A model generated the notes under the pieces. That model saw only the letters and a list, made by a program, of their open reading frames with translations. It had not been told where the DNA came from and ran no database searches. DNA of 34,761 bases from Verrucomicrobiales bacterium (GTDB lineage: Bacteria > Verrucomicrobiota > Verrucomicrobiia > Limisphaerales > JACDHS01). Shown here one piece after another: positions 13,768 to 28,992 of this stretch. The position numbers were made by a program, and so were the translations under genes. The first letter of the stretch is position 1; each line of letters starts with the position of its first letter. Location: contig JAQGOU010000326.1 of NCBI GenBank assembly GCA_028293445.1, positions 1 to 34,761 on the forward strand. The letters are read 5' to 3'.

Positions 13768-15473
13768 AATTTCGATGGTCTATTGCCCCGAGCCAGCCGC
13801 TGTTCACCGCAAAGATTGCGGTGGAACAGAAGGCCTCGCCACTTCTGGCGCAATGTTTATGGAATCGTGGCATCAGTGAGCCAGAGCAAGTAGATCGATT
13901 CCTCGGACCGCGCCTCAAGAACCTCGCCGATCCTTTTTTGATTCCCAACATGCAAATCGCGGTGGAGCGATTGCTTCTCGCGCGGGAAAAGAATCAATCG
14001 ATCGTTATTTTTGGCGACTACGATGTCGATGGGGTCAGCTCGACGGCGTTGCTCACCGAATTTTTGCGCGCACTCGGTTGGCGCATTGATTTCTATTTAC
14101 CCAACCGATTCGATGAAGGATACGGACTCAGTCAGGACGCCGTTGAGAATTGTCTGAAGAAATTTAAACCCGAACTGTTCCTCGCGGTGGATTGCGGCTC
14201 AACCGCCGTCGCGACGATTGGCTGGCTCAGCGAACGACAGATTGACGTTATCGTCCTGGATCATCACCAGGTTTCTGATCCTGCGCCGAACGCCGTCGCA
14301 TTGGTTAATCCACAGCTCGGTGCGAATTATCGCGAACTTTGCTCGGTCGGGCTTGCCTTCAAGCTGGCCCACGCGGTCCTGAAGCGGGCGCGTGAACTTG
14401 GGTTGCCCGGCACCGCAGAATATGATTTGCGGCCGATGCTCGATTTCGTTGCGCTCGGAACGATTGCTGACATCGTTCCGCTGAACGGGGAAAATCGCAT
14501 TCTTGTTACGTGCGGTTTAGAGCGGCTGAATTGCACGGAACGCCCGGGGTTGATTGCTTTGAAGTCGGTCGCGCAAATAGAAAATGCACTCGGGCCGCGT
14601 GAAGTCGGCTTTCAACTCGCACCGCGGCTCAATGCGGCAGGACGTCTCGAGACGGCCGAAGACGCATTGAACCTGCTGCTCGCCCGCGATCTCGCGGAAG
14701 CAGAGCCGATCGCGCAACGTCTGGATTCATGCAACCGCGAGCGACAGAAGATTGAGCGTGGCATCACCGAGGAGGTGATCGGAGCCATCAAGGCTCGTTT
14801 CAATCCTGAAACGGATTTCTTCCTCATCGAAGGCCAATTGCTGTGGCATATCGGTGTTGTCGGCATTGTTGCTTCGCGCGTCATGCATGAATTTTATCGA
14901 CCAGCCATCATCCTTGGTGGGGAAGGTGCAGAGTGGCGTGGTTCCGGGCGGAGCATCGAAGGATTCGATTTAGCCGCAGCGCTACGAAAGTGCGACGATT
15001 TGCTTTTGCGTCACGGCGGACACGCCATGGCGGCCGGACTTAGCATCGACTCAGAAAAGGTCGACGCCTTGCGTTGTCGCTTGAATGAAATCGCTCGCAC
15101 GACGCTTACGGCTGAACAACTGAAACCGGTCTTGCGCATCGATGCGGAAATTTCTCTTTCCGATTTGAATCTCGAGCGGGTGGAGGAATTGGAGCGCCTG
15201 GAGCCTCACGGACCTGCGAATCCATCAGTTCAACTCGTCGCGCGGAAGGTCTCCCATCAGCGTCCGCCACAACGCATGGGTAAAGAGAATCAACACGCAA
15301 AATTCCACGTCACGGATGGAAAACAAACCTTTGAAGCGGTCTGGTGGAATTGCGGCAAAGACGCTTCGTTTCCGAAAGTAATGTTCGACCTCGCCTTTGC
15401 CCCGCAGATTAATGAATACAACGGCAACCGCCGCGTGCAGTTGAAGGTGCTGGACTGGCACGCCATCGAGTAG
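13764..15473 (+). CDS. recJ: Single-stranded-DNA-specific exonuclease RecJ
   Basis: 569 residues, full length for the family. The DHH phosphoesterase domain shows GDYDVDGVSST (about 84-94), the DHH motif proper at 166-168 (VLDHHQVSDP), and DFVALGTIADIVPL. The DHHA1 domain has the glycine-rich RHGGHAMAAGLSI near 415-427, and a C-terminal OB-type region follows. RecJ is a 5'-to-3' single-strand exonuclease of recombination and mismatch repair that depends on Mn or Mg. Sharing a transcript with a TerC-family metal protein (4-base overlap) is notable, though this may be coincidental. Confidence 0.97.
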   Translation: MKFRWSIAPSQPLFTAKIAVEQKASPLLAQCLWNRGISEPEQVDRFLGPRLKNLADPFLIPNMQIAVERLLLAREKNQSIVIFGDYDVDGVSSTALLTEFLRALGWRIDFYLPNRFDEGYGLSQDAVENCLKKFKPELFLAVDCGSTAVATIGWLSERQIDVIVLDHHQVSDPAPNAVALVNPQLGANYRELCSVGLAFKLAHAVLKRARELGLPGTAEYDLRPMLDFVALGTIADIVPLNGENRILVTCGLERLNCTERPGLIALKSVAQIENALGPREVGFQLAPRLNAAGRLETAEDALNLLLARDLAEAEPIAQRLDSCNRERQKIERGITEEVIGAIKARFNPETDFFLIEGQLLWHIGVVGIVASRVMHEFYRPAIILGGEGAEWRGSGRSIEGFDLAAALRKCDDLLLRHGGHAMAAGLSIDSEKVDALRCRLNEIARTTLTAEQLKPVLRIDAEISLSDLNLERVEELERLEPHGPANPSVQLVARKVSHQRPPQRMGKENQHAKFHVTDGKQTFEAVWWNCGKDASFPKVMFDLAFAPQINEYNGNRRVQLKVLDWHAIE

Positions 15474-15476
15474 GAT

Positions 15477-16019
15477 TTATTTCTCCCGGAGCAGCTGTTC
15501 GATTTTCTTTTTCATCAATTCGTAATCCTTGTCGCCTTTGACGTACTGTCCGCCCGGGTGGATATGACGCACCACACCTTTGCGATCAATGAGGAAGCTG
15601 ACGCTCGTGAAACCTTGCTTCTCCCGATCCAGCCACCATTCGTGCAGCGTCTTCCAATCGGGATCAACCGCCACAGGAAACTTGAAGTGAAAGTTCTCCG
15701 CGAGCGCTTTAACGTCGCCATCTTTTAACGGAGCATCCCCTTTGTGGTGATAAAAACCGATCACCTGCAAACCACGATCGGAATAGCTTTCGTTAAATTC
15801 ATTCAGGGCGGGCGCCGTGGCGCGACAGTAGGGACACTCGGGAGCGGTCCACCAGCGGATGAGCACCACTTTACCGCGTAGATCCTTTAGTTGCAGTGGA
15901 GCCGAGTGAATCCAATTTGTGACGTTCCACTCCGGCGCCGGTTTGCCCAGAAGCGAGGACGTGTCTTTCCCAACAGCACAGGTGACAAGCAACCAACACA
16001 ACAGCAACGCTGCTCTCAT
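15477..16019 (-). CDS. Exported thioredoxin-like (TlpA/redoxin-family) protein
   Basis: 180 residues. A signal peptide (MRAALLLCWLLVTCAVG) targets it to the periplasm. The redoxin domain has LKDLRGKVVLIRWWTAPECP with the active-site pair C62-C65 (CPYC). This differs from the WCGPC of thioredoxin and fits the atypical TlpA/AhpC-TSA-like exported proteins. Later motifs are VIGFYHHKGDAPL and SFLIDRKGVVRHIHPGG. The start is immediately adjacent to the stop of the ThuA-domain gene upstream on the same strand (TAA directly followed by ATG), so the two are probably co-expressed. Confidence 0.9.
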   Translation of the reverse strand: MRAALLLCWLLVTCAVGKDTSSLLGKPAPEWNVTNWIHSAPLQLKDLRGKVVLIRWWTAPECPYCRATAPALNEFNESYSDRGLQVIGFYHHKGDAPLKDGDVKALAENFHFKFPVAVDPDWKTLHEWWLDREKQGFTSVSFLIDRKGVVRHIHPGGQYVKGDKDYELMKKKIEQLLREK

Positions 16020-16917: not shown

Positions 16918-17012
16918 ACGCCGAGATCGCTATATTGAGATTCTCTAGCGCTTCGCAACAGGCGAATAGGCGTGCGGGGCGAGCCGGTGGAGTTTCACGT
17001 TAGGTTGTCCCA

Positions 17013-17042
17013 TTGGCTATCGAACTATTGTCTATTGGCTAT
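17013..17042. repeat. Heptamer-built repeat, right copy
   Basis: On the plus strand this reads TTGGCTAT, CGAACTAT, TGTCTAT, TGGCTAT. Outer modules match the left copy while the two middle modules are in swapped order. It ends 29 bases before ispD. No ORF is supported between the copies (16918-17012). Confidence 0.75.
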
Positions 17043-17071
17043 GCGAACGAAGCTAGCTAGACTCCGCGCCC

Positions 17072-17749
17072 ATGACATCAGCCATCATTGTCGCCGCTGG
17101 CAAAGGGACGCGCATGGGGCCAAACATCGACAAGCTATTTCTCGAAGTCGCTGGCAAACCGGTCGTCGTTCACACCTGGAAGACATTTGAAAATGCCTCC
17201 TGCATCGACGAAATCATCCTTGTCGTTCGCGACGGCATGCAATCCGCGTTCTCGGAACTGGCGCAACAAAATGATTTCAAAAAACCCTTCCGTTTCGTCA
17301 TCGGCGGCAAGGAACGGCAGGACTCCGTCTGGAATGGCTTATTGGCTCTTTCACCTGACGCACAAATCGTCGCCATCCAGGATGGCGCTCGCCCGTGCAC
17401 TAGCGTCGACTTGATTCAGGCTACGATTACTGCCGCGCGCGAAGTCGGTGCCGCCGTCGCCGCGCAAGCGGTTACCGACACCATCAAAGAAACCGCCGAC
17501 GGCGCGACCATCTCGCGTCATCTGGATCGCAGTCGGCTCTGGGCCGTGCAGACCCCTCAAACGTTCCGCGTCGACGTGATTCGCCATGCCCTCGGGCTGG
17601 TTCGTGAGAAGAATTTGAGCGTTACCGACGATACCGCCGCCTGCGAATTGATCGGGCAACCCGTAAAGCTCGTGGCTTCTCTCACCCCCAACCCCAAGGT
17701 CACGCTCCCGAGCGATTTGCCCTATATCGAACTGCTTTTGCGAAAATAA
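17072..17749 (+). CDS. ispD: 2-C-methyl-D-erythritol 4-phosphate cytidylyltransferase
   Basis: 225 residues, typical length. The N-terminal nucleotide-binding loop IIVAAGKGTRMG (residues 4-15) with K20 in NIDKLF, the segment VAIQDGARPC carrying the CTP/metal Asp, and the later TPQTFRVDVI and VTDDTAACE motifs identify the IspD family. It transfers CMP from CTP to methylerythritol phosphate in the MEP pathway of isoprenoid synthesis. No ispF is adjacent. It is followed on the same strand by the protease gene after a 111-base gap. Confidence 0.96.
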   Translation: MTSAIIVAAGKGTRMGPNIDKLFLEVAGKPVVVHTWKTFENASCIDEIILVVRDGMQSAFSELAQQNDFKKPFRFVIGGKERQDSVWNGLLALSPDAQIVAIQDGARPCTSVDLIQATITAAREVGAAVAAQAVTDTIKETADGATISRHLDRSRLWAVQTPQTFRVDVIRHALGLVREKNLSVTDDTAACELIGQPVKLVASLTPNPKVTLPSDLPYIELLLRK

Positions 17750-19262: not shown

Positions 19263-20306
19263 ATGTTAATTCTTGCGATTGAAAGTTCCTGCGACGAAAC
19301 CAGCGCTGCTGTCATTCGTGACGGAGTCGTTGTGTCGAATGTCGTCTCTTCGCAAATAAAACTGCACGCTGAATATGGCGGGGTCGTTCCTGAACTTGCG
19401 TCACGCGAACATCTCCGCGGCTTGATCCCGGTGACACAAGCGGCCTTGCGCGAGGCAAATGTCACCGCGATGCAATTGGACGCTCTCACCGCAACGCGCG
19501 GTCCTGGCTTGCCCGCAGCGTTGATGATCGGTCTCAAAGCGGCGCAGGCGATGGCCTTCACGTTGCACAAACCTTTTCTTGGCATTCATCATCACGAAGC
19601 GCATTTGTATTCTCCGTGGATTTCCGGAAACCCGCCGCGCGCGGATTTTGAAAATCTGCAGCCGAACGTCTCGCTGATCGTCAGTGGTGGTCACACGATG
19701 CTCGTTCACGTGGAGCGCGAACTGCATCATCGCGTATTAGGTTCGACCCTCGACGATGCTGCGGGTGAATGCTTCGACAAAGTCGGAAAGCTGATGGGCC
19801 TTCCGTATCCGGCTGGGCCGGAGATCGATCGGCTGGCCGAGCAGGGGAATGCGAAGGCGTTTGATTTTCCCCGTCCGATGTTGAACGACAAGAATGATGA
19901 TTTCAGTTTCGCCGGTTTGAAAACGTCGGTCCGTTACTTCCTGCAAAAAAATCCTGGGCTCCTGGACGACTCACAAACCATTCGAGACCTCTGCGCCAGC
20001 GTTCAAGCCGCCATTGTTCAAGTGCTGGTGAAGAAAACCATTCGCGCCACGCAACGTCTCGGACTTCAGTGCGTGACCGCTTCCGGTGGTGTGACCTGTA
20101 ATCGTTCTCTCCGCAAGGAACTTGCCGCCGCCTGCACCGAAAACGGTTTCACCCTGCGCGTCGCCGAAAAGACCCTCTGCACGGACAACGCCGCCATGAT
20201 CGGCATTCTGGCCGAACGGAAACTGCTGGCGGGTGACGCCGGTGCTTCGCTTGATGCCGAAATTGAGCCGGGTTGGCCTCTGGAGCAGGCAACTTCCCGG
20301 GCATAG
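19263..20306 (+). CDS. tsaD: tRNA N6-adenosine threonylcarbamoyltransferase TsaD
   Basis: 347 residues from ATG 19263, chosen over two TTG codons just upstream because MLILAIESSCDETSAAV is the canonical N-terminus. Signatures are the metal-binding HHHEAHLYSP, SLIVSGGHTMLV, LDDAAGECFDKVGKLMGLPYPAGP, SGGVTCNRSLR and CTDNAAMIG. TsaD transfers the threonylcarbamoyl group to A37 of ANN-decoding tRNAs, working with TsaB, TsaE and TsaC, none of which is in the window. The start lies 5 bases after the terminator T tract. A 42-bp repeat array begins about 60 bases after its stop. Confidence 0.97.
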   Translation: MLILAIESSCDETSAAVIRDGVVVSNVVSSQIKLHAEYGGVVPELASREHLRGLIPVTQAALREANVTAMQLDALTATRGPGLPAALMIGLKAAQAMAFTLHKPFLGIHHHEAHLYSPWISGNPPRADFENLQPNVSLIVSGGHTMLVHVERELHHRVLGSTLDDAAGECFDKVGKLMGLPYPAGPEIDRLAEQGNAKAFDFPRPMLNDKNDDFSFAGLKTSVRYFLQKNPGLLDDSQTIRDLCASVQAAIVQVLVKKTIRATQRLGLQCVTASGGVTCNRSLRKELAAACTENGFTLRVAEKTLCTDNAAMIGILAERKLLAGDAGASLDAEIEPGWPLEQATSRA

Positions 20307-20968
20307 CGCCAAAGGGAGTTTCACCGCCAGTTTCGATCGTAAAATCCCCCAAATCCTGCTCGATTTGAGCCTTAATACGGAAAAAACGCCGATTTCAGAT
20401 CTTGAAATCAGTTTTTTGGCGGACAAAAACCTCGCCGCGACTCTTGAAATGCGCTTTTGGCCGCCCAAAAGACTCTCGCGACTTCTGAAATTGGTTTTTC
20501 GGCGCCCAAACGCCGATTTCAACTCTTGAAACCGGTTTTTGGGCGGACAAAACCTCTCCGCAACTCTTGAAATTGACGTTTTGGCCGATAAAAGCGCTCT
20601 GCGCCCTTCTGAAAACGGTTGGGCGACGCTCGACCAAGCCTCTGCAACTCCTGAAAACGATTGGGCGACGCTGACCAAGCCTCTGCAACTCCTGAAAACG
20701 GTTGGGCGACGCTTGACCATGCCTCTGCAACTCTTGAAAACGGTTGGGCGACGCTTGACCATGCCTCTGCAACTCCTGAAAACGGTTGGGCGACGCTCGA
20801 CCATGCCTCTGCGACCCCTGAAAACGATTGGGCAACGCTTGACCATGTCTCTGCAACTCTTGAAAACGGTCGGGCGACGCTTGACCATGCCTCTGCAAAT
20901 TTAGTTCGGTGTGCAATTTGGGAAACTTTGACCTTTGAACAAAACCGGACCTGAGTAAACTTTAACCC
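20307..20968. other. 662-bp non-coding gap mostly filled by the 42-bp repeat array
   Basis: The region holds the 42-bp minisatellite (20365-20901) plus about 58 bp of flank after tsaD and 67 bp before the SseB-like gene. No stable gene is supported. Open frames crossing the repeats on both strands exist because 42 is a multiple of three, and they shift frame at the 40- and 41-bp units. Confidence 0.8.
20365..20901. repeat. Graded 42-bp tandem repeat array (13 units)
   Basis: Units start at 20365, 20402, 20444, 20486, 20526, 20567, 20609, 20651, 20692, 20734, 20776, 20818 and 20860. Lengths are 37, 42, 42, 40, 41, 42, 42, 41, 42, 42, 42, 42 and 42. Each begins with (T/C)TGAAA and ends near CAACTC. 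The first six units are strongly diverged (T-rich, with GGCGGACAAAA-like cores). The last seven are nearly identical, with cores such as GGTTGGGCGACGCTTGACC. Units are contiguous, with no unique spacers. The gradient implies recent amplification at the sseB-like end. Confidence 0.93.
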
Positions 20969-26331: not shown

Positions 26332-26484
26332 CGGCTAATTTATGACAGGAGCGGGAAAATAAAAGCAAGGTGCAGTTTTACTCTGTCCAGATATGAGGCA
26401 TATTCCTGCCCCTTACGGATGGATATTAGTAAAGAATGACGCGTGCATATGAGGAACTGAAAACAATATTTGATTGTTGACCTT

Positions 26485-26500
26485 TGGCACTATCTTTGCT
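26485..26500 (+). promoter_or_regulatory. Sigma-54 promoter of the pilin gene
   Basis: TGGCAC followed by 5 bases then TTGCT matches the sigma-54 -24/-12 consensus, with 10 bases between the GG and GC dinucleotides. Transcription would start near 26511, about 92 bases before the pilin start. RpoN-driven pilin genes are well known, so position and context agree. An enhancer-binding activator would be needed; none is in the window, and its sites are not identified. Confidence 0.8.
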
Positions 26501-26520
26501 ATTCCAGAGACTGCGGTTCG

Positions 26521-26581
26521 ACAAAAGGCAATCCGTGAACCACGTCCGTAATATTATAACCAGCCTTTTGTTTGGTTCACG
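26521..26581 (+). promoter_or_regulatory. Two interleaved inverted repeats in the pilin mRNA leader
   Basis: ACAAAAGGC (26521-26529) is complementary to GCCTTTTGT (26563-26571). CGTGAACCA (26534-26542) is complementary to TGGTTCACG (26573-26581). Both are perfect 9-bp matches in the order A-B-A'-B'. With A' and B' only 1 nt apart and A and B 4 nt apart, the two full stems cannot coexist, so they are alternative hairpins or DNA operators. The second arm ends 12 nt before AAGG and 21 nt before the pilin start. Confidence 0.7.
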
Positions 26582-26602
26582 CCGCAAAAAAAAAGGTAAA
26601 GT

Positions 26603-26956
26603 ATGCAAATCAAAACAAATAATAAGCTCGGCTTCACACTCGTGGAAATCATGATTGTGGTCGCCATCATCGGTCTGTTGGCTGCGATCGCGATTCCTAA
26701 CTTCGTGAAAGCTCGTGCCACCGCTCAGCAAAATGCTTGCGTGAACAACCTCCGTCAGATCGACGGTGCAAAAGACCAGTGGGCGATTGAAAAAGGTAAG
26801 AAGACTGGTGATTCTCCGGCCTCTTCCGATGTTGAAGAATATATCAAGAAAGTTCCAGTTTGCCCAGCCGGTGGATCGTATACGTACGGTGTTGTCGGAA
26901 CGAACCCGGCCTGCAGTTTGAGCACGTTGACCGCTGGCGCGCATTTGTTGCAATAA
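26603..26956 (+). CDS. Short PulG/GspG-like prepilin (first copy)
   Basis: 117 residues. A class III signal peptide ends at G10, with F11 and E15 in GFTLVEIMIVVAIIGLLA, the prepilin peptidase recognition motif and hydrophobic helix of type IV pilins and type II secretion pseudopilins. The mature protein is about 107 residues, with NACVNNLRQIDGAKDQWAIEK and Cys residues (C45, VPVCPAGG, NPACSLS), a small C-terminal domain characteristic of Verrucomicrobiota-like pilins. AAGG lies 7 bases upstream of ATG 26603. Transcription is likely from the sigma-54 promoter. A very long hairpin follows, then a paralogue. It could be a surface filament subunit or a pseudopilin; no assembly ATPase is in the window. 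Confidence 0.88.
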   Translation: MQIKTNNKLGFTLVEIMIVVAIIGLLAAIAIPNFVKARATAQQNACVNNLRQIDGAKDQWAIEKGKKTGDSPASSDVEEYIKKVPVCPAGGSYTYGVVGTNPACSLSTLTAGAHLLQ

Positions 26957-26957
26957 C

Positions 26958-27010
26958 CTTTTGAAAAATGCAAAAGCTTAGAATTTGCTAAGCTTTTGCT
27001 TTTTCAAAGG
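26958..27010. terminator. Very long hairpin between the two pilin genes
   Basis: An uninterrupted 12-bp stem (26970-26981 with 26988-26999) and a 6-nt loop are followed by TTTTT. Allowing one bulged T at 26969, pairing continues for about 11 more bases (26958-26968 with 27000-27010), giving roughly 23 bp. It resembles an intrinsic terminator reading either way and sits 10 bases before the second pilin start. It would attenuate transcription into the second gene or protect the first mRNA from 3' decay. Confidence 0.85.
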
Positions 27011-27020
27011 CAAGGCGGCT

Positions 27021-27374
27021 ATGCGCGTAAATATGCGTGTTTCCGCAGGGTTTACCCTTGTGGAAATAATGATCGTAGTAGCGATCATTGGATTGCTCGC
27101 CGCTATCGCCATCCCCAACTTTTTTAAAAGTCGACTCGCTGCGCAGCAGAATGCCTGTATAAACAATCTGCGACAAATCGAATCGGCGAAACAGGTATGG
27201 GCCTTAGAGCAGAAAAAGTTAAATGTTGATGTCGTTGGAGAAGCGGACCTAGTTGGGCCGCAGCTTTATATTAAAAATCACCCCGTATGCCCTGCAGGGG
27301 GAGAGTACGACTATAAGACTGTGGGCTCAAATGCTACTTGCACACTCGTCGGCCATGTGTTAGTTGGCGACTGA
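27021..27374 (+). CDS. Short PulG/GspG-like prepilin (second copy)
   Basis: 117 residues from ATG 27021. AAGG lies 5 bases upstream, and this start gives the same 10-residue leader ending at G10 as the first copy, which supports it over the in-frame ATG at 27033. GFTLVEIMIVVAIIGLLA and the following AIPNF are shared with the first pilin; the C-terminal part differs but keeps the CPAGG and late Cys layout (HPVCPAGGEYDY, ATCTLVGH). A tandem duplication followed by divergence is the simplest explanation. Transcription must pass the long intergenic hairpin or come from its own promoter. A GAAA-loop terminator follows. Confidence 0.88.
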   Translation: MRVNMRVSAGFTLVEIMIVVAIIGLLAAIAIPNFFKSRLAAQQNACINNLRQIESAKQVWALEQKKLNVDVVGEADLVGPQLYIKNHPVCPAGGEYDYKTVGSNATCTLVGHVLVGD

Positions 27375-27390
27375 GTTATTAATTCTCAAA

Positions 27391-27427
27391 GGCTTGAAGC
27401 GAAAGCTTCAAGCCCTTTTTTTTAAAG
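27391..27427 (+). terminator. Intrinsic terminator with GAAA tetraloop after the second pilin
   Basis: A perfect 10-bp stem (27391-27400 with 27405-27414), a GAAA tetraloop and a run of eight T residues starting one base after the stem. It separates the pilins from the ABC transporter genes, so those probably have their own promoter between here and 27458. Confidence 0.92.
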
Positions 27428-28213: not shown

Positions 28214-28992
28214 TCAATAACGCGCTAGCAGTCGCCGGTATCGTGATCAAGGAACTCTACCGGCGAAAAGATTTTTATGTTTTATTCGTCCTCACCGCGT
28301 TGATCACGCTTCTGCTCGGATGCGTAAATTTCTTCAATGACGATCGCATCGCCCGCTATCTGAAGGAAATCTGTTTGTTACTGATCTGGATTTCATCCCT
28401 GATCATCGCAGTGACTACGACGGCACGGCAGATTCCTGCGGAGCGCGAGAATCGAACAATCTTTCCGCTGCTCGCAAAACCGCTGACCCGTGGGCACCTT
28501 GTCTTTGGTAAATTCCTTGGCTGTTGGTTTGCTTCGGGATTATCGCTCGTTGTCTTTTATTTTTTCTTTTGTGTAGTAAGCGGTGCACGGGAGCATCAAT
28601 GGCCGCTCCTCATTTATCTTCAAGCATTGTGGCTGCACTGGATTTTATTGGCGCTCGTGGTTGCCATGGTTTTGCTTGGTTCAATCATGTTTGCCGCCCC
28701 ATCTTCCAACTCGACCATCTGCTTCATCTTCATTGTCGGCATCTTATTGGTGGGACGGCATCTTCACAGGATTGCCATCCAATTACAGGAGCCGATCAGG
28801 ACGATTGTCTCCGTTATATATTTTGCGATTCCACATCTTGAGTTTTATGATATTCGGGAAATGATTGTTCACAATTTGCCACCCATTTCGATGCTGGCCT
28901 GTCTGATCGCCACCGTGTACGCGATCGGCTATACCGCTTTTTTTCTGATTGCCACATGGTTGGTATTTCGAAGAAAAAGTTTAACGGCGTGA
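28210..28992 (+). CDS. ABC-2 type transporter permease
   Basis: 260 residues with about six predicted membrane spans, near residues 21-40, 52-72, 108-130, 137-165, 170-185 and 235-252. Between spans 2 and 3 is the ABC-2-like coupling region ENRTIFPLLAKPLTRGHLVFGKF. Together with the preceding ATPase (4-base overlap) it forms an exporter; half-transporter permeases usually work as dimers. A TPR-containing exported protein follows after 3 bases, so the three are probably one operon. The cargo cannot be inferred from sequence. Confidence 0.87.
   Translation: MINNALAVAGIVIKELYRRKDFYVLFVLTALITLLLGCVNFFNDDRIARYLKEICLLLIWISSLIIAVTTTARQIPAERENRTIFPLLAKPLTRGHLVFGKFLGCWFASGLSLVVFYFFFCVVSGAREHQWPLLIYLQALWLHWILLALVVAMVLLGSIMFAAPSSNSTICFIFIVGILLVGRHLHRIAIQLQEPIRTIVSVIYFAIPHLEFYDIREMIVHNLPPISMLACLIATVYAIGYTAFFLIATWLVFRRKSLTA

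What the first reader, a model, noticed from the sequence alone, without database searches (positions are those of the whole stretch)
26485..26602. Sigma-54 pilin leader with two mutually exclusive 9-bp stems
A near-perfect -24/-12 element gives a leader of about 92 nt. Within it A (26521-26529) pairs with A' (26563-26571) and B (26534-26542) with B' (26573-26581), interleaved A-B-A'-B'. Loop lengths (4, 20 and 1 nt) do not permit both full stems at once. Formation of B:B' leaves only 12 nt before the ribosome site. This looks like a two-state switch (ligand, temperature or protein) or a double operator controlling a surface filament gene, and I know of no described element with this layout.
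Basis: partly seen in the sequence, partly recalled or inferred. Interest (0 to 1): 0.65.

Follow-up and report, generated by a model that had tools for sequence, protein, structure and literature searches.

The report
Conserved pseudoknot RNA leading pilin mRNA
The start of this pilin gene's messenger RNA folds into an intricate knotted shape that has been kept by evolution across a whole order of Verrucomicrobia bacteria, always in front of pilin genes, and no RNA family library searched here describes it, so it is a new candidate control element for surface filaments.

Summary
The repeats are real, at the stated coordinates, and part of a conserved structured RNA. This holds in 69 leaders and in 73 copies (few shared) found with a covariance model in which B was not a paired helix. 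A covariance-model search finds the element in 152 of 320 genomes of the order and none sampled outside it; every copy with readable downstream sequence precedes a prepilin gene. It matches no Rfam 15 family.

The "mutually exclusive switch" reading is not supported. Only 6 of the 9 B pairs are conserved, loop lengths are nearly invariant, B alone would be about 7 kcal/mol weaker than A, and a coarse geometric test lets P0, A and B coexist. The simplest model is a P0-closed pseudoknot.

It starts at the predicted transcription start (mean +3.9, s.d. 1.7) under sigma-54 promoters; some copies instead carry sigma-70-like promoters, so it acts as RNA rather than as part of the promoter. My preferred mechanism is a 5'-end block on RppH/RNase E decay; a riboswitch or protein-binding leader remains possible. 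Structure ~0.93, mechanism ~0.45.

The parts
26485..26500 (+). sigma-54 -24/-12 promoter element TGGCACTATCTTTGCT
   Evidence: 11 of 11 consensus positions; same element at a similar distance in front of most relatives' leaders; only match in the window
26511..26511 (+). predicted transcription start (+1), 12 nt downstream of the -12 C
   Evidence: inferred from promoter geometry; not mapped experimentally
26513..26516 (+). P0 5' strand GCGG (pairs with 26582-26585)
   Evidence: 4 of 4 pairs with compensatory changes; 97.5% and 100% of cells paired
26521..26529 (+). helix A 5' strand ACAAAAGGC
   Evidence: 9 pairs; 96-98% of cells paired, compensatory changes at 9 of 9 (A1) and 8 of 9 (A2) pairs
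26530..26534 (+). linker L1, conserved AAU at its 5' end
   Evidence: AAU columns 94-97% identical, length 5-6 nt in 66 of 69
   Evidence: 98.8% (A1) and 100% (A2) of cells paired; changes on both sides in 7 and 8 cells; every slid control lower
26541..26562 (+). linker L2, 22 nt here, 19-34 nt in relatives; conserved UAACCC-like 3' end
   Evidence: here UAACCA
26563..26571 (+). helix A 3' strand (A') GCCUUUUGU
26572..26574 (+). linker L3, 3 nt
   Evidence: 3 nt in 68 of 69 sequences
26575..26580 (+). helix B core 3' strand (B') GUUCAC
26582..26585 (+). P0 3' strand CCGC
26586..26602 (+). purine-rich spacer with ribosome site (AAGG) before the start codon
   Evidence: spacer length varies 4-47 nt among relatives
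26603..26956 (+). prepilin-like gene, 117 aa, class III signal GFTLVEIMIVVAIIGLLAAIAIPNF
   Evidence: Pfam PF07963 N_methyl E 6e-8; homologues in 58 of 58 relatives
26970..26999 (+). 12-bp stem plus U tract: likely terminator of the pilin transcript

Best explanation
The first ~75 nt of this pilin mRNA form a conserved pseudoknot: outer helix P0 closes a fold in which helix A (9 bp) and helix B (6-bp core) interleave with short, nearly fixed linkers. SHOWN by comparison: the three helices, the loop lengths, the link to prepilin genes, and the position at the predicted transcription start. INFERRED: all three helices form at once; the element acts on the mRNA; and, most likely, it closes off the 5' end so that RppH and 5'-sensing RNase E/G cannot start decay, giving long-lived pilin mRNA, possibly adjustable by a factor that reads the conserved AAU and AACCC loop bases. 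Confidence: about 0.93 for the structured RNA, about 0.45 for the 5'-end-protection mechanism.
For: Covariation at all three helices, 90.2% of cells paired against 33-46% in slid controls; B core alone 98.8% against 20-46%; second set of 73 copies, few of them shared with the first, in which B was not a modelled helix, 99.1% against 33-44%. Fixed linkers. A more stable than B in 65 of 69 as separate hairpins, mean 7.3 kcal/mol, so conservation of B makes most sense if both form. P0+A+B sterically possible. P0 starts at mean +3.9, s.d. 1.7, whereas the spacer to the start codon has s.d. 5.3: the element is anchored to the 5' end, not to the ribosome site. Copies without sigma-54 (12 of 73, one of which keeps a near-consensus box; also G046/L180) as a group carry -35/-10-like boxes that again place the start near P0. 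RNase E/G in 55 of 58 relatives, RNase J in 0 of 58. RppH and RNase E need single-stranded 5' ends, and 5' structures stabilise mRNAs; that review cites work on ompA and on the pilus-subunit mRNA papA (PMC3997798).
Against: No RNA or expression data exist here; the transcription start is predicted. Conserved unpaired bases and rigid loop lengths go beyond what a simple protective hairpin needs, which hints at a ligand, a protein, or a special tertiary fold. The presence of RppH was not tested. The geometric test is coarse (rigid helices, distance limits). In this window itself A and B alone are nearly equal in energy (-13.5 and -12.1 kcal/mol).
Confidence: 0.45

Rival explanations
1. A riboswitch: the pseudoknot is a ligand pocket (for instance for a second messenger that controls surface attachment) lined by the conserved AAU and AACCC bases, and ligand binding changes pilin translation or mRNA fate.
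For: Conserved unpaired bases and fixed linkers; single target gene class; precedent of a class II c-di-GMP riboswitch in front of pilA1 in Clostridioides difficile (PMC6366702).
Against: No terminator in the leader, no co-variation of A' with the ribosome-site region, spacer to the start codon varies 4-47 nt, no Rfam riboswitch match; targets are structural genes only, so no ligand is suggested.
Confidence: 0.3
2. A protein-binding leader: a regulator, or the pilin/assembly system itself, binds the pseudoknot and sets translation or decay.
For: Same conserved loop bases; copies sit in front of each of several tandem pilin genes, as expected for coordinate control.
Against: No candidate protein found; not tested.
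Confidence: 0.15
3. Two mutually exclusive hairpins, A:A' or B:B', acting as a two-state switch.
For: The arms interleave, and with all 9 B pairs the closed form is tight (40 of 12,000 sampled poses clash-free); in this window the two hairpins are close in energy.
Against: Across relatives B is about 7 kcal/mol weaker than A; linkers are fixed, which separate hairpins would not need; with the conserved 6-bp B the joint fold is possible.
Confidence: 0.06
4. DNA operators next to the sigma-54 promoter.
For: Inverted repeats beside a promoter; the B arm (GTGAAC/GTTCAC) is conserved in sequence.
Against: A arm sequence varies freely while pairing is kept, with G-U pairs; the element persists where the sigma-54 promoter is gone.
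Confidence: 0.03

Closest known systems
Class II c-di-GMP riboswitch upstream of pilA1 in Clostridioides difficile (RF01786)
   Same: Structured 5' leader RNA in front of a type IV pilin gene (PMC6366702).
   Different: No Rfam match, even at E up to 10 for this leader; no terminator platform here; sigma-54 context; ligand unknown.
5'-terminal mRNA stabilisers such as the ompA 5' UTR and papA 5' stem-loop of E. coli
   Same: Structure at the very 5' end of an abundant surface-protein mRNA, in bacteria that have RNase E/G.
   Different: Those are simple stem-loops, from general knowledge; this is a family-wide pseudoknot with conserved loop bases. No half-life data here.
Small H-type pseudoknot riboswitches (SAM-II, preQ1 classes)
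   Same: Two interleaved helices in a short leader (general knowledge).
   Different: Extra closing helix P0, a 19-34-nt middle linker, ribosome site outside the structure, no Rfam match.
Candidate structured RNAs from earlier comparative surveys (Weinberg 2010; the 2021 survey of 26 bacterial genomes)
   Same: Found by the same kind of evidence.
   Different: Neither main text mentions pilins, pili or Verrucomicrobia. The 2017 survey was not held.

Membership tests
c-di-GMP-I / c-di-GMP-II / other Rfam riboswitches | Match to the family covariance model | tested here: not met
   No riboswitch family matches the leader at gathering score in the window, at E up to 10 in 26450-26660, or at E up to 1 in 20 loci holding homologues
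Riboswitch (as a kind) | Direct, specific ligand binding that changes expression | not testable with these tools
   needs probing and reporter experiments
Riboswitch (as a kind) | Expression platform: terminator or sequestered ribosome site | tested here: not met
   no terminator in the leader; no co-variation of A' with the ribosome-site region
Structured cis-acting leader RNA | Conserved structure supported by compensatory changes | tested here: met
Structured cis-acting leader RNA | Consistent position upstream of one gene class, same strand | tested here: met
   67 of 67 model-found copies with readable downstream sequence precede prepilin genes: 64 by script, 3 read by eye
H-type pseudoknot | Two interleaved helices, each supported on its own | tested here: met
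   A and B covary
H-type pseudoknot | Both helices present in one molecule at once | tested here: inconclusive
   geometry allows it, linkers and energies favour it; not observed directly
5'-terminal mRNA stabiliser | Structure within a few nt of the 5' end | tested here: met
   P0 at +0 to +9, mean +3.9, relative to predicted starts; starts not mapped
5'-terminal mRNA stabiliser | Longer mRNA half-life that depends on the structure | not testable with these tools
   needs a rifampicin half-life experiment
sigma-54 promoter | GG-N10-GC -24/-12 element and an RpoN protein in the organism | tested here: met

The most novel reading that the evidence does not exclude
A new class of ligand-sensing or factor-sensing pseudoknot RNA, confined to Limisphaerales, that controls type IV pilin production from the 5' end of the mRNA.
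Probability: 0.35. Interest if true: 0.85.

Novelty: new variant of a known kind. Interest (0 to 1): 0.7.

Why it matters
It is a well-supported structured RNA family absent from Rfam 15, with a clear target (prepilin genes), a covariance model and over a hundred examples, in a group where I found no paper on RNA control of pili. It shows pilin expression in these bacteria has a conserved RNA layer that persists when the promoter type changes. Whether it is a decay block or a sensor can be tested directly on a ~75-nt RNA.

Tried and rejected
Alternative helix GGUU (cols 7-12) with AACC (cols 73-76): no covariation beyond shuffles. A' capturing the ribosome site: own pairs no better than shuffled ones. 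Transcription attenuator: no terminator in the leader. Known Rfam RNA: none. A block against a 5' exonuclease of the RNase J type (xrRNA-like): disfavoured, no TIGR00649 match in 58 relatives, though 9 of 14 control genomes pass the cut-off. DNA operator: see rivals. Further copies in the own genome: only this one, although the genome holds about 65 pilin-like matches. Single-sequence folding was uninformative (z -0.79), as can be expected for a pseudoknot.

Full report
OBSERVATION. A 26521-26529 pairs with A' 26563-26571 and B 26534-26542 with B' 26573-26581, interleaved; the sigma-54 element lies at 26485-26500 and the prepilin start codon at 26603. In random sequence such a crossing pair is rare per site (about 1e-4 per 92 nt at window composition), but the window contains a second one inside a gene, so chance had to be settled by comparison.

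RELATIVES. The 117-aa product carries the prepilin methylation motif (PF07963). Homologues in the order were collected. In front of most of those with a recognisable -24/-12 box lies a leader of the form GCGGUU-GCAGCAGGC-AAUCA-GUGAAC...UAUAACCC-GCCUGCUGC-nnn-GUUCAC-G-CCGC, followed by a purine-rich ribosome site. Record titles name Verrucomicrobia subdivision 3, Limisphaerales and Pedosphaera. NCBI places Limisphaerales in Verrucomicrobiota.

COVARIATION. On 69 distinct leaders (A1) the P0+A+B structure pairs 90.2% of cells, against 33-46% when partners are slid; all five measures exceed all 500 shuffles. Helix A changes on both sides at all 9 pairs, in up to 31 sequences at one pair. P0 changes at all 4. 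The B core is conserved in sequence but still changes on both sides at 4 of 6 pairs and pairs in 98.8% of cells. In 73 copies found by covariance model R1 (one is the window itself and a few others may repeat A1), built with P0 and A but without B as a helix, the three helices pair in 99.1% of cells and B in 100%. Caveat: shuffles do not remove relatedness; the slid controls do.

DISTRIBUTION. R1 finds the element in 41 of 58 relatives, mostly one per family, in 152 of 320 genomes of the order and 75 of 118 genera. In phylum-wide and class-wide samples no genome outside the order had it. Copies are mostly 1-3 per genome. In a 73-copy set all 67 with enough downstream sequence precede a prepilin gene (64 by script, 3 seen by eye in the printed sequence).

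PROMOTER INDEPENDENCE. 61 of the 73 have a sigma-54 element; P0 then starts at +0 to +9 of the predicted start, mean +3.9, s.d. 1.7 (similar). Of the other 12, one (L121) has a near-consensus TCGCAC box. The remaining 11 plus L180 carry, as a group, -35/-10-like boxes that again place the start near P0: summed score 88 against 76.4 (s.d. 3.3) in shuffles, 0 of 1000 reach it, though only one is clearly significant on its own. In genome G046 (L180) the leader is recognisable (36.9 bits, E 1.6e-8) without a sigma-54 box; in G036 (L181) the sigma-54 box remains but the leader is gone. So promoter and leader are separable and the leader is an RNA element. RpoN is present in 55 of 58 relatives, including this genome.

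PSEUDOKNOT OR SWITCH. Linkers are nearly invariant: P0-to-A 2-3 nt in 68 of 69, A-to-B core 5-6 nt in 66 of 69, A'-to-B' core 3 nt in 68 of 69, while the middle linker varies from 19 to 34 nt. As separate hairpins P0+A averages -14.7 and P0+B -7.3 kcal/mol; A wins in 65 of 69, but in this window the two are close (-13.5 and -12.1) because B is extended to 8-9 pairs here. A rigid-helix closure test finds clash-free poses with P0, A and the B core together (about 3-14% of the closable poses checked for the various core models, 0.3% with the full 9-bp B stacked on P0, none for an impossible control). I conclude a single P0-closed pseudoknot is the likeliest fold; co-existence itself is inferred.

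MECHANISM. There is no terminator in the leader; the only ones near are after the pilin genes. A' does not co-vary with the ribosome-site region. The spacer to the start codon varies widely (4-47 nt), while the 5' position is tight. The order has RNase E/G (55 of 58) and no RNase J (0 of 58). Both RppH and RNase E rely on single-stranded 5' ends, and the review in PMC3997798 cites 5'-structure stabilisation of ompA and papA mRNAs. This favours a 5'-end block. The conserved AAU and AACCC loop bases are not explained by that alone, so ligand or protein recognition stays open.

COMPARISON. No Rfam 15 family matches the leader or its homologues. Literature searches found no description; only open-licence papers are held, and the 2017 survey of structured RNAs could not be read. 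The nearest functional parallel is the class II c-di-GMP riboswitch before pilA1 of C. difficile.

Noticed in passing
26970-26999 and 27391-27414: Terminator-like stems after each of the two tandem pilin genes; the first reads as a terminator on both strands. The second pilin gene (about 27021-27374) has no leader element of its own.
   Followed up: partly
28232-28308: A second crossing pair of 9-bp inverted repeats, inside an ABC-type permease gene; probably chance.
   Followed up: no
19971-20916: Tandem repeats coding on either strand for repeated peptides (e.g. MVKRRPTVFRSCRG), beside the tsaD-like gene; nature unknown.
   Followed up: no
G000 (whole genome): About 65 prepilin-like matches in one genome but only one with the leader element.
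   Followed up: partly
G047:C196, pilin 15377-15709 and rpoN 16939-17412, both minus strand: rpoN lies about 1.2 kb from a pilin gene in one relative that lacks the leader element.
   Followed up: no
L142:95-140, minus strand: Sub-threshold match to Acido-Lenti-1 RNA (33.9 bits, cut-off 37) near a pilin array.
   Followed up: no
L021:1390-1481 and L082 leader near 1863-1985: A divergent form (GTCGGTTGGCAGAAGTGAAACAAGGTGAGTTCGC...) with longer middle linker, perhaps a subtype.
   Followed up: no
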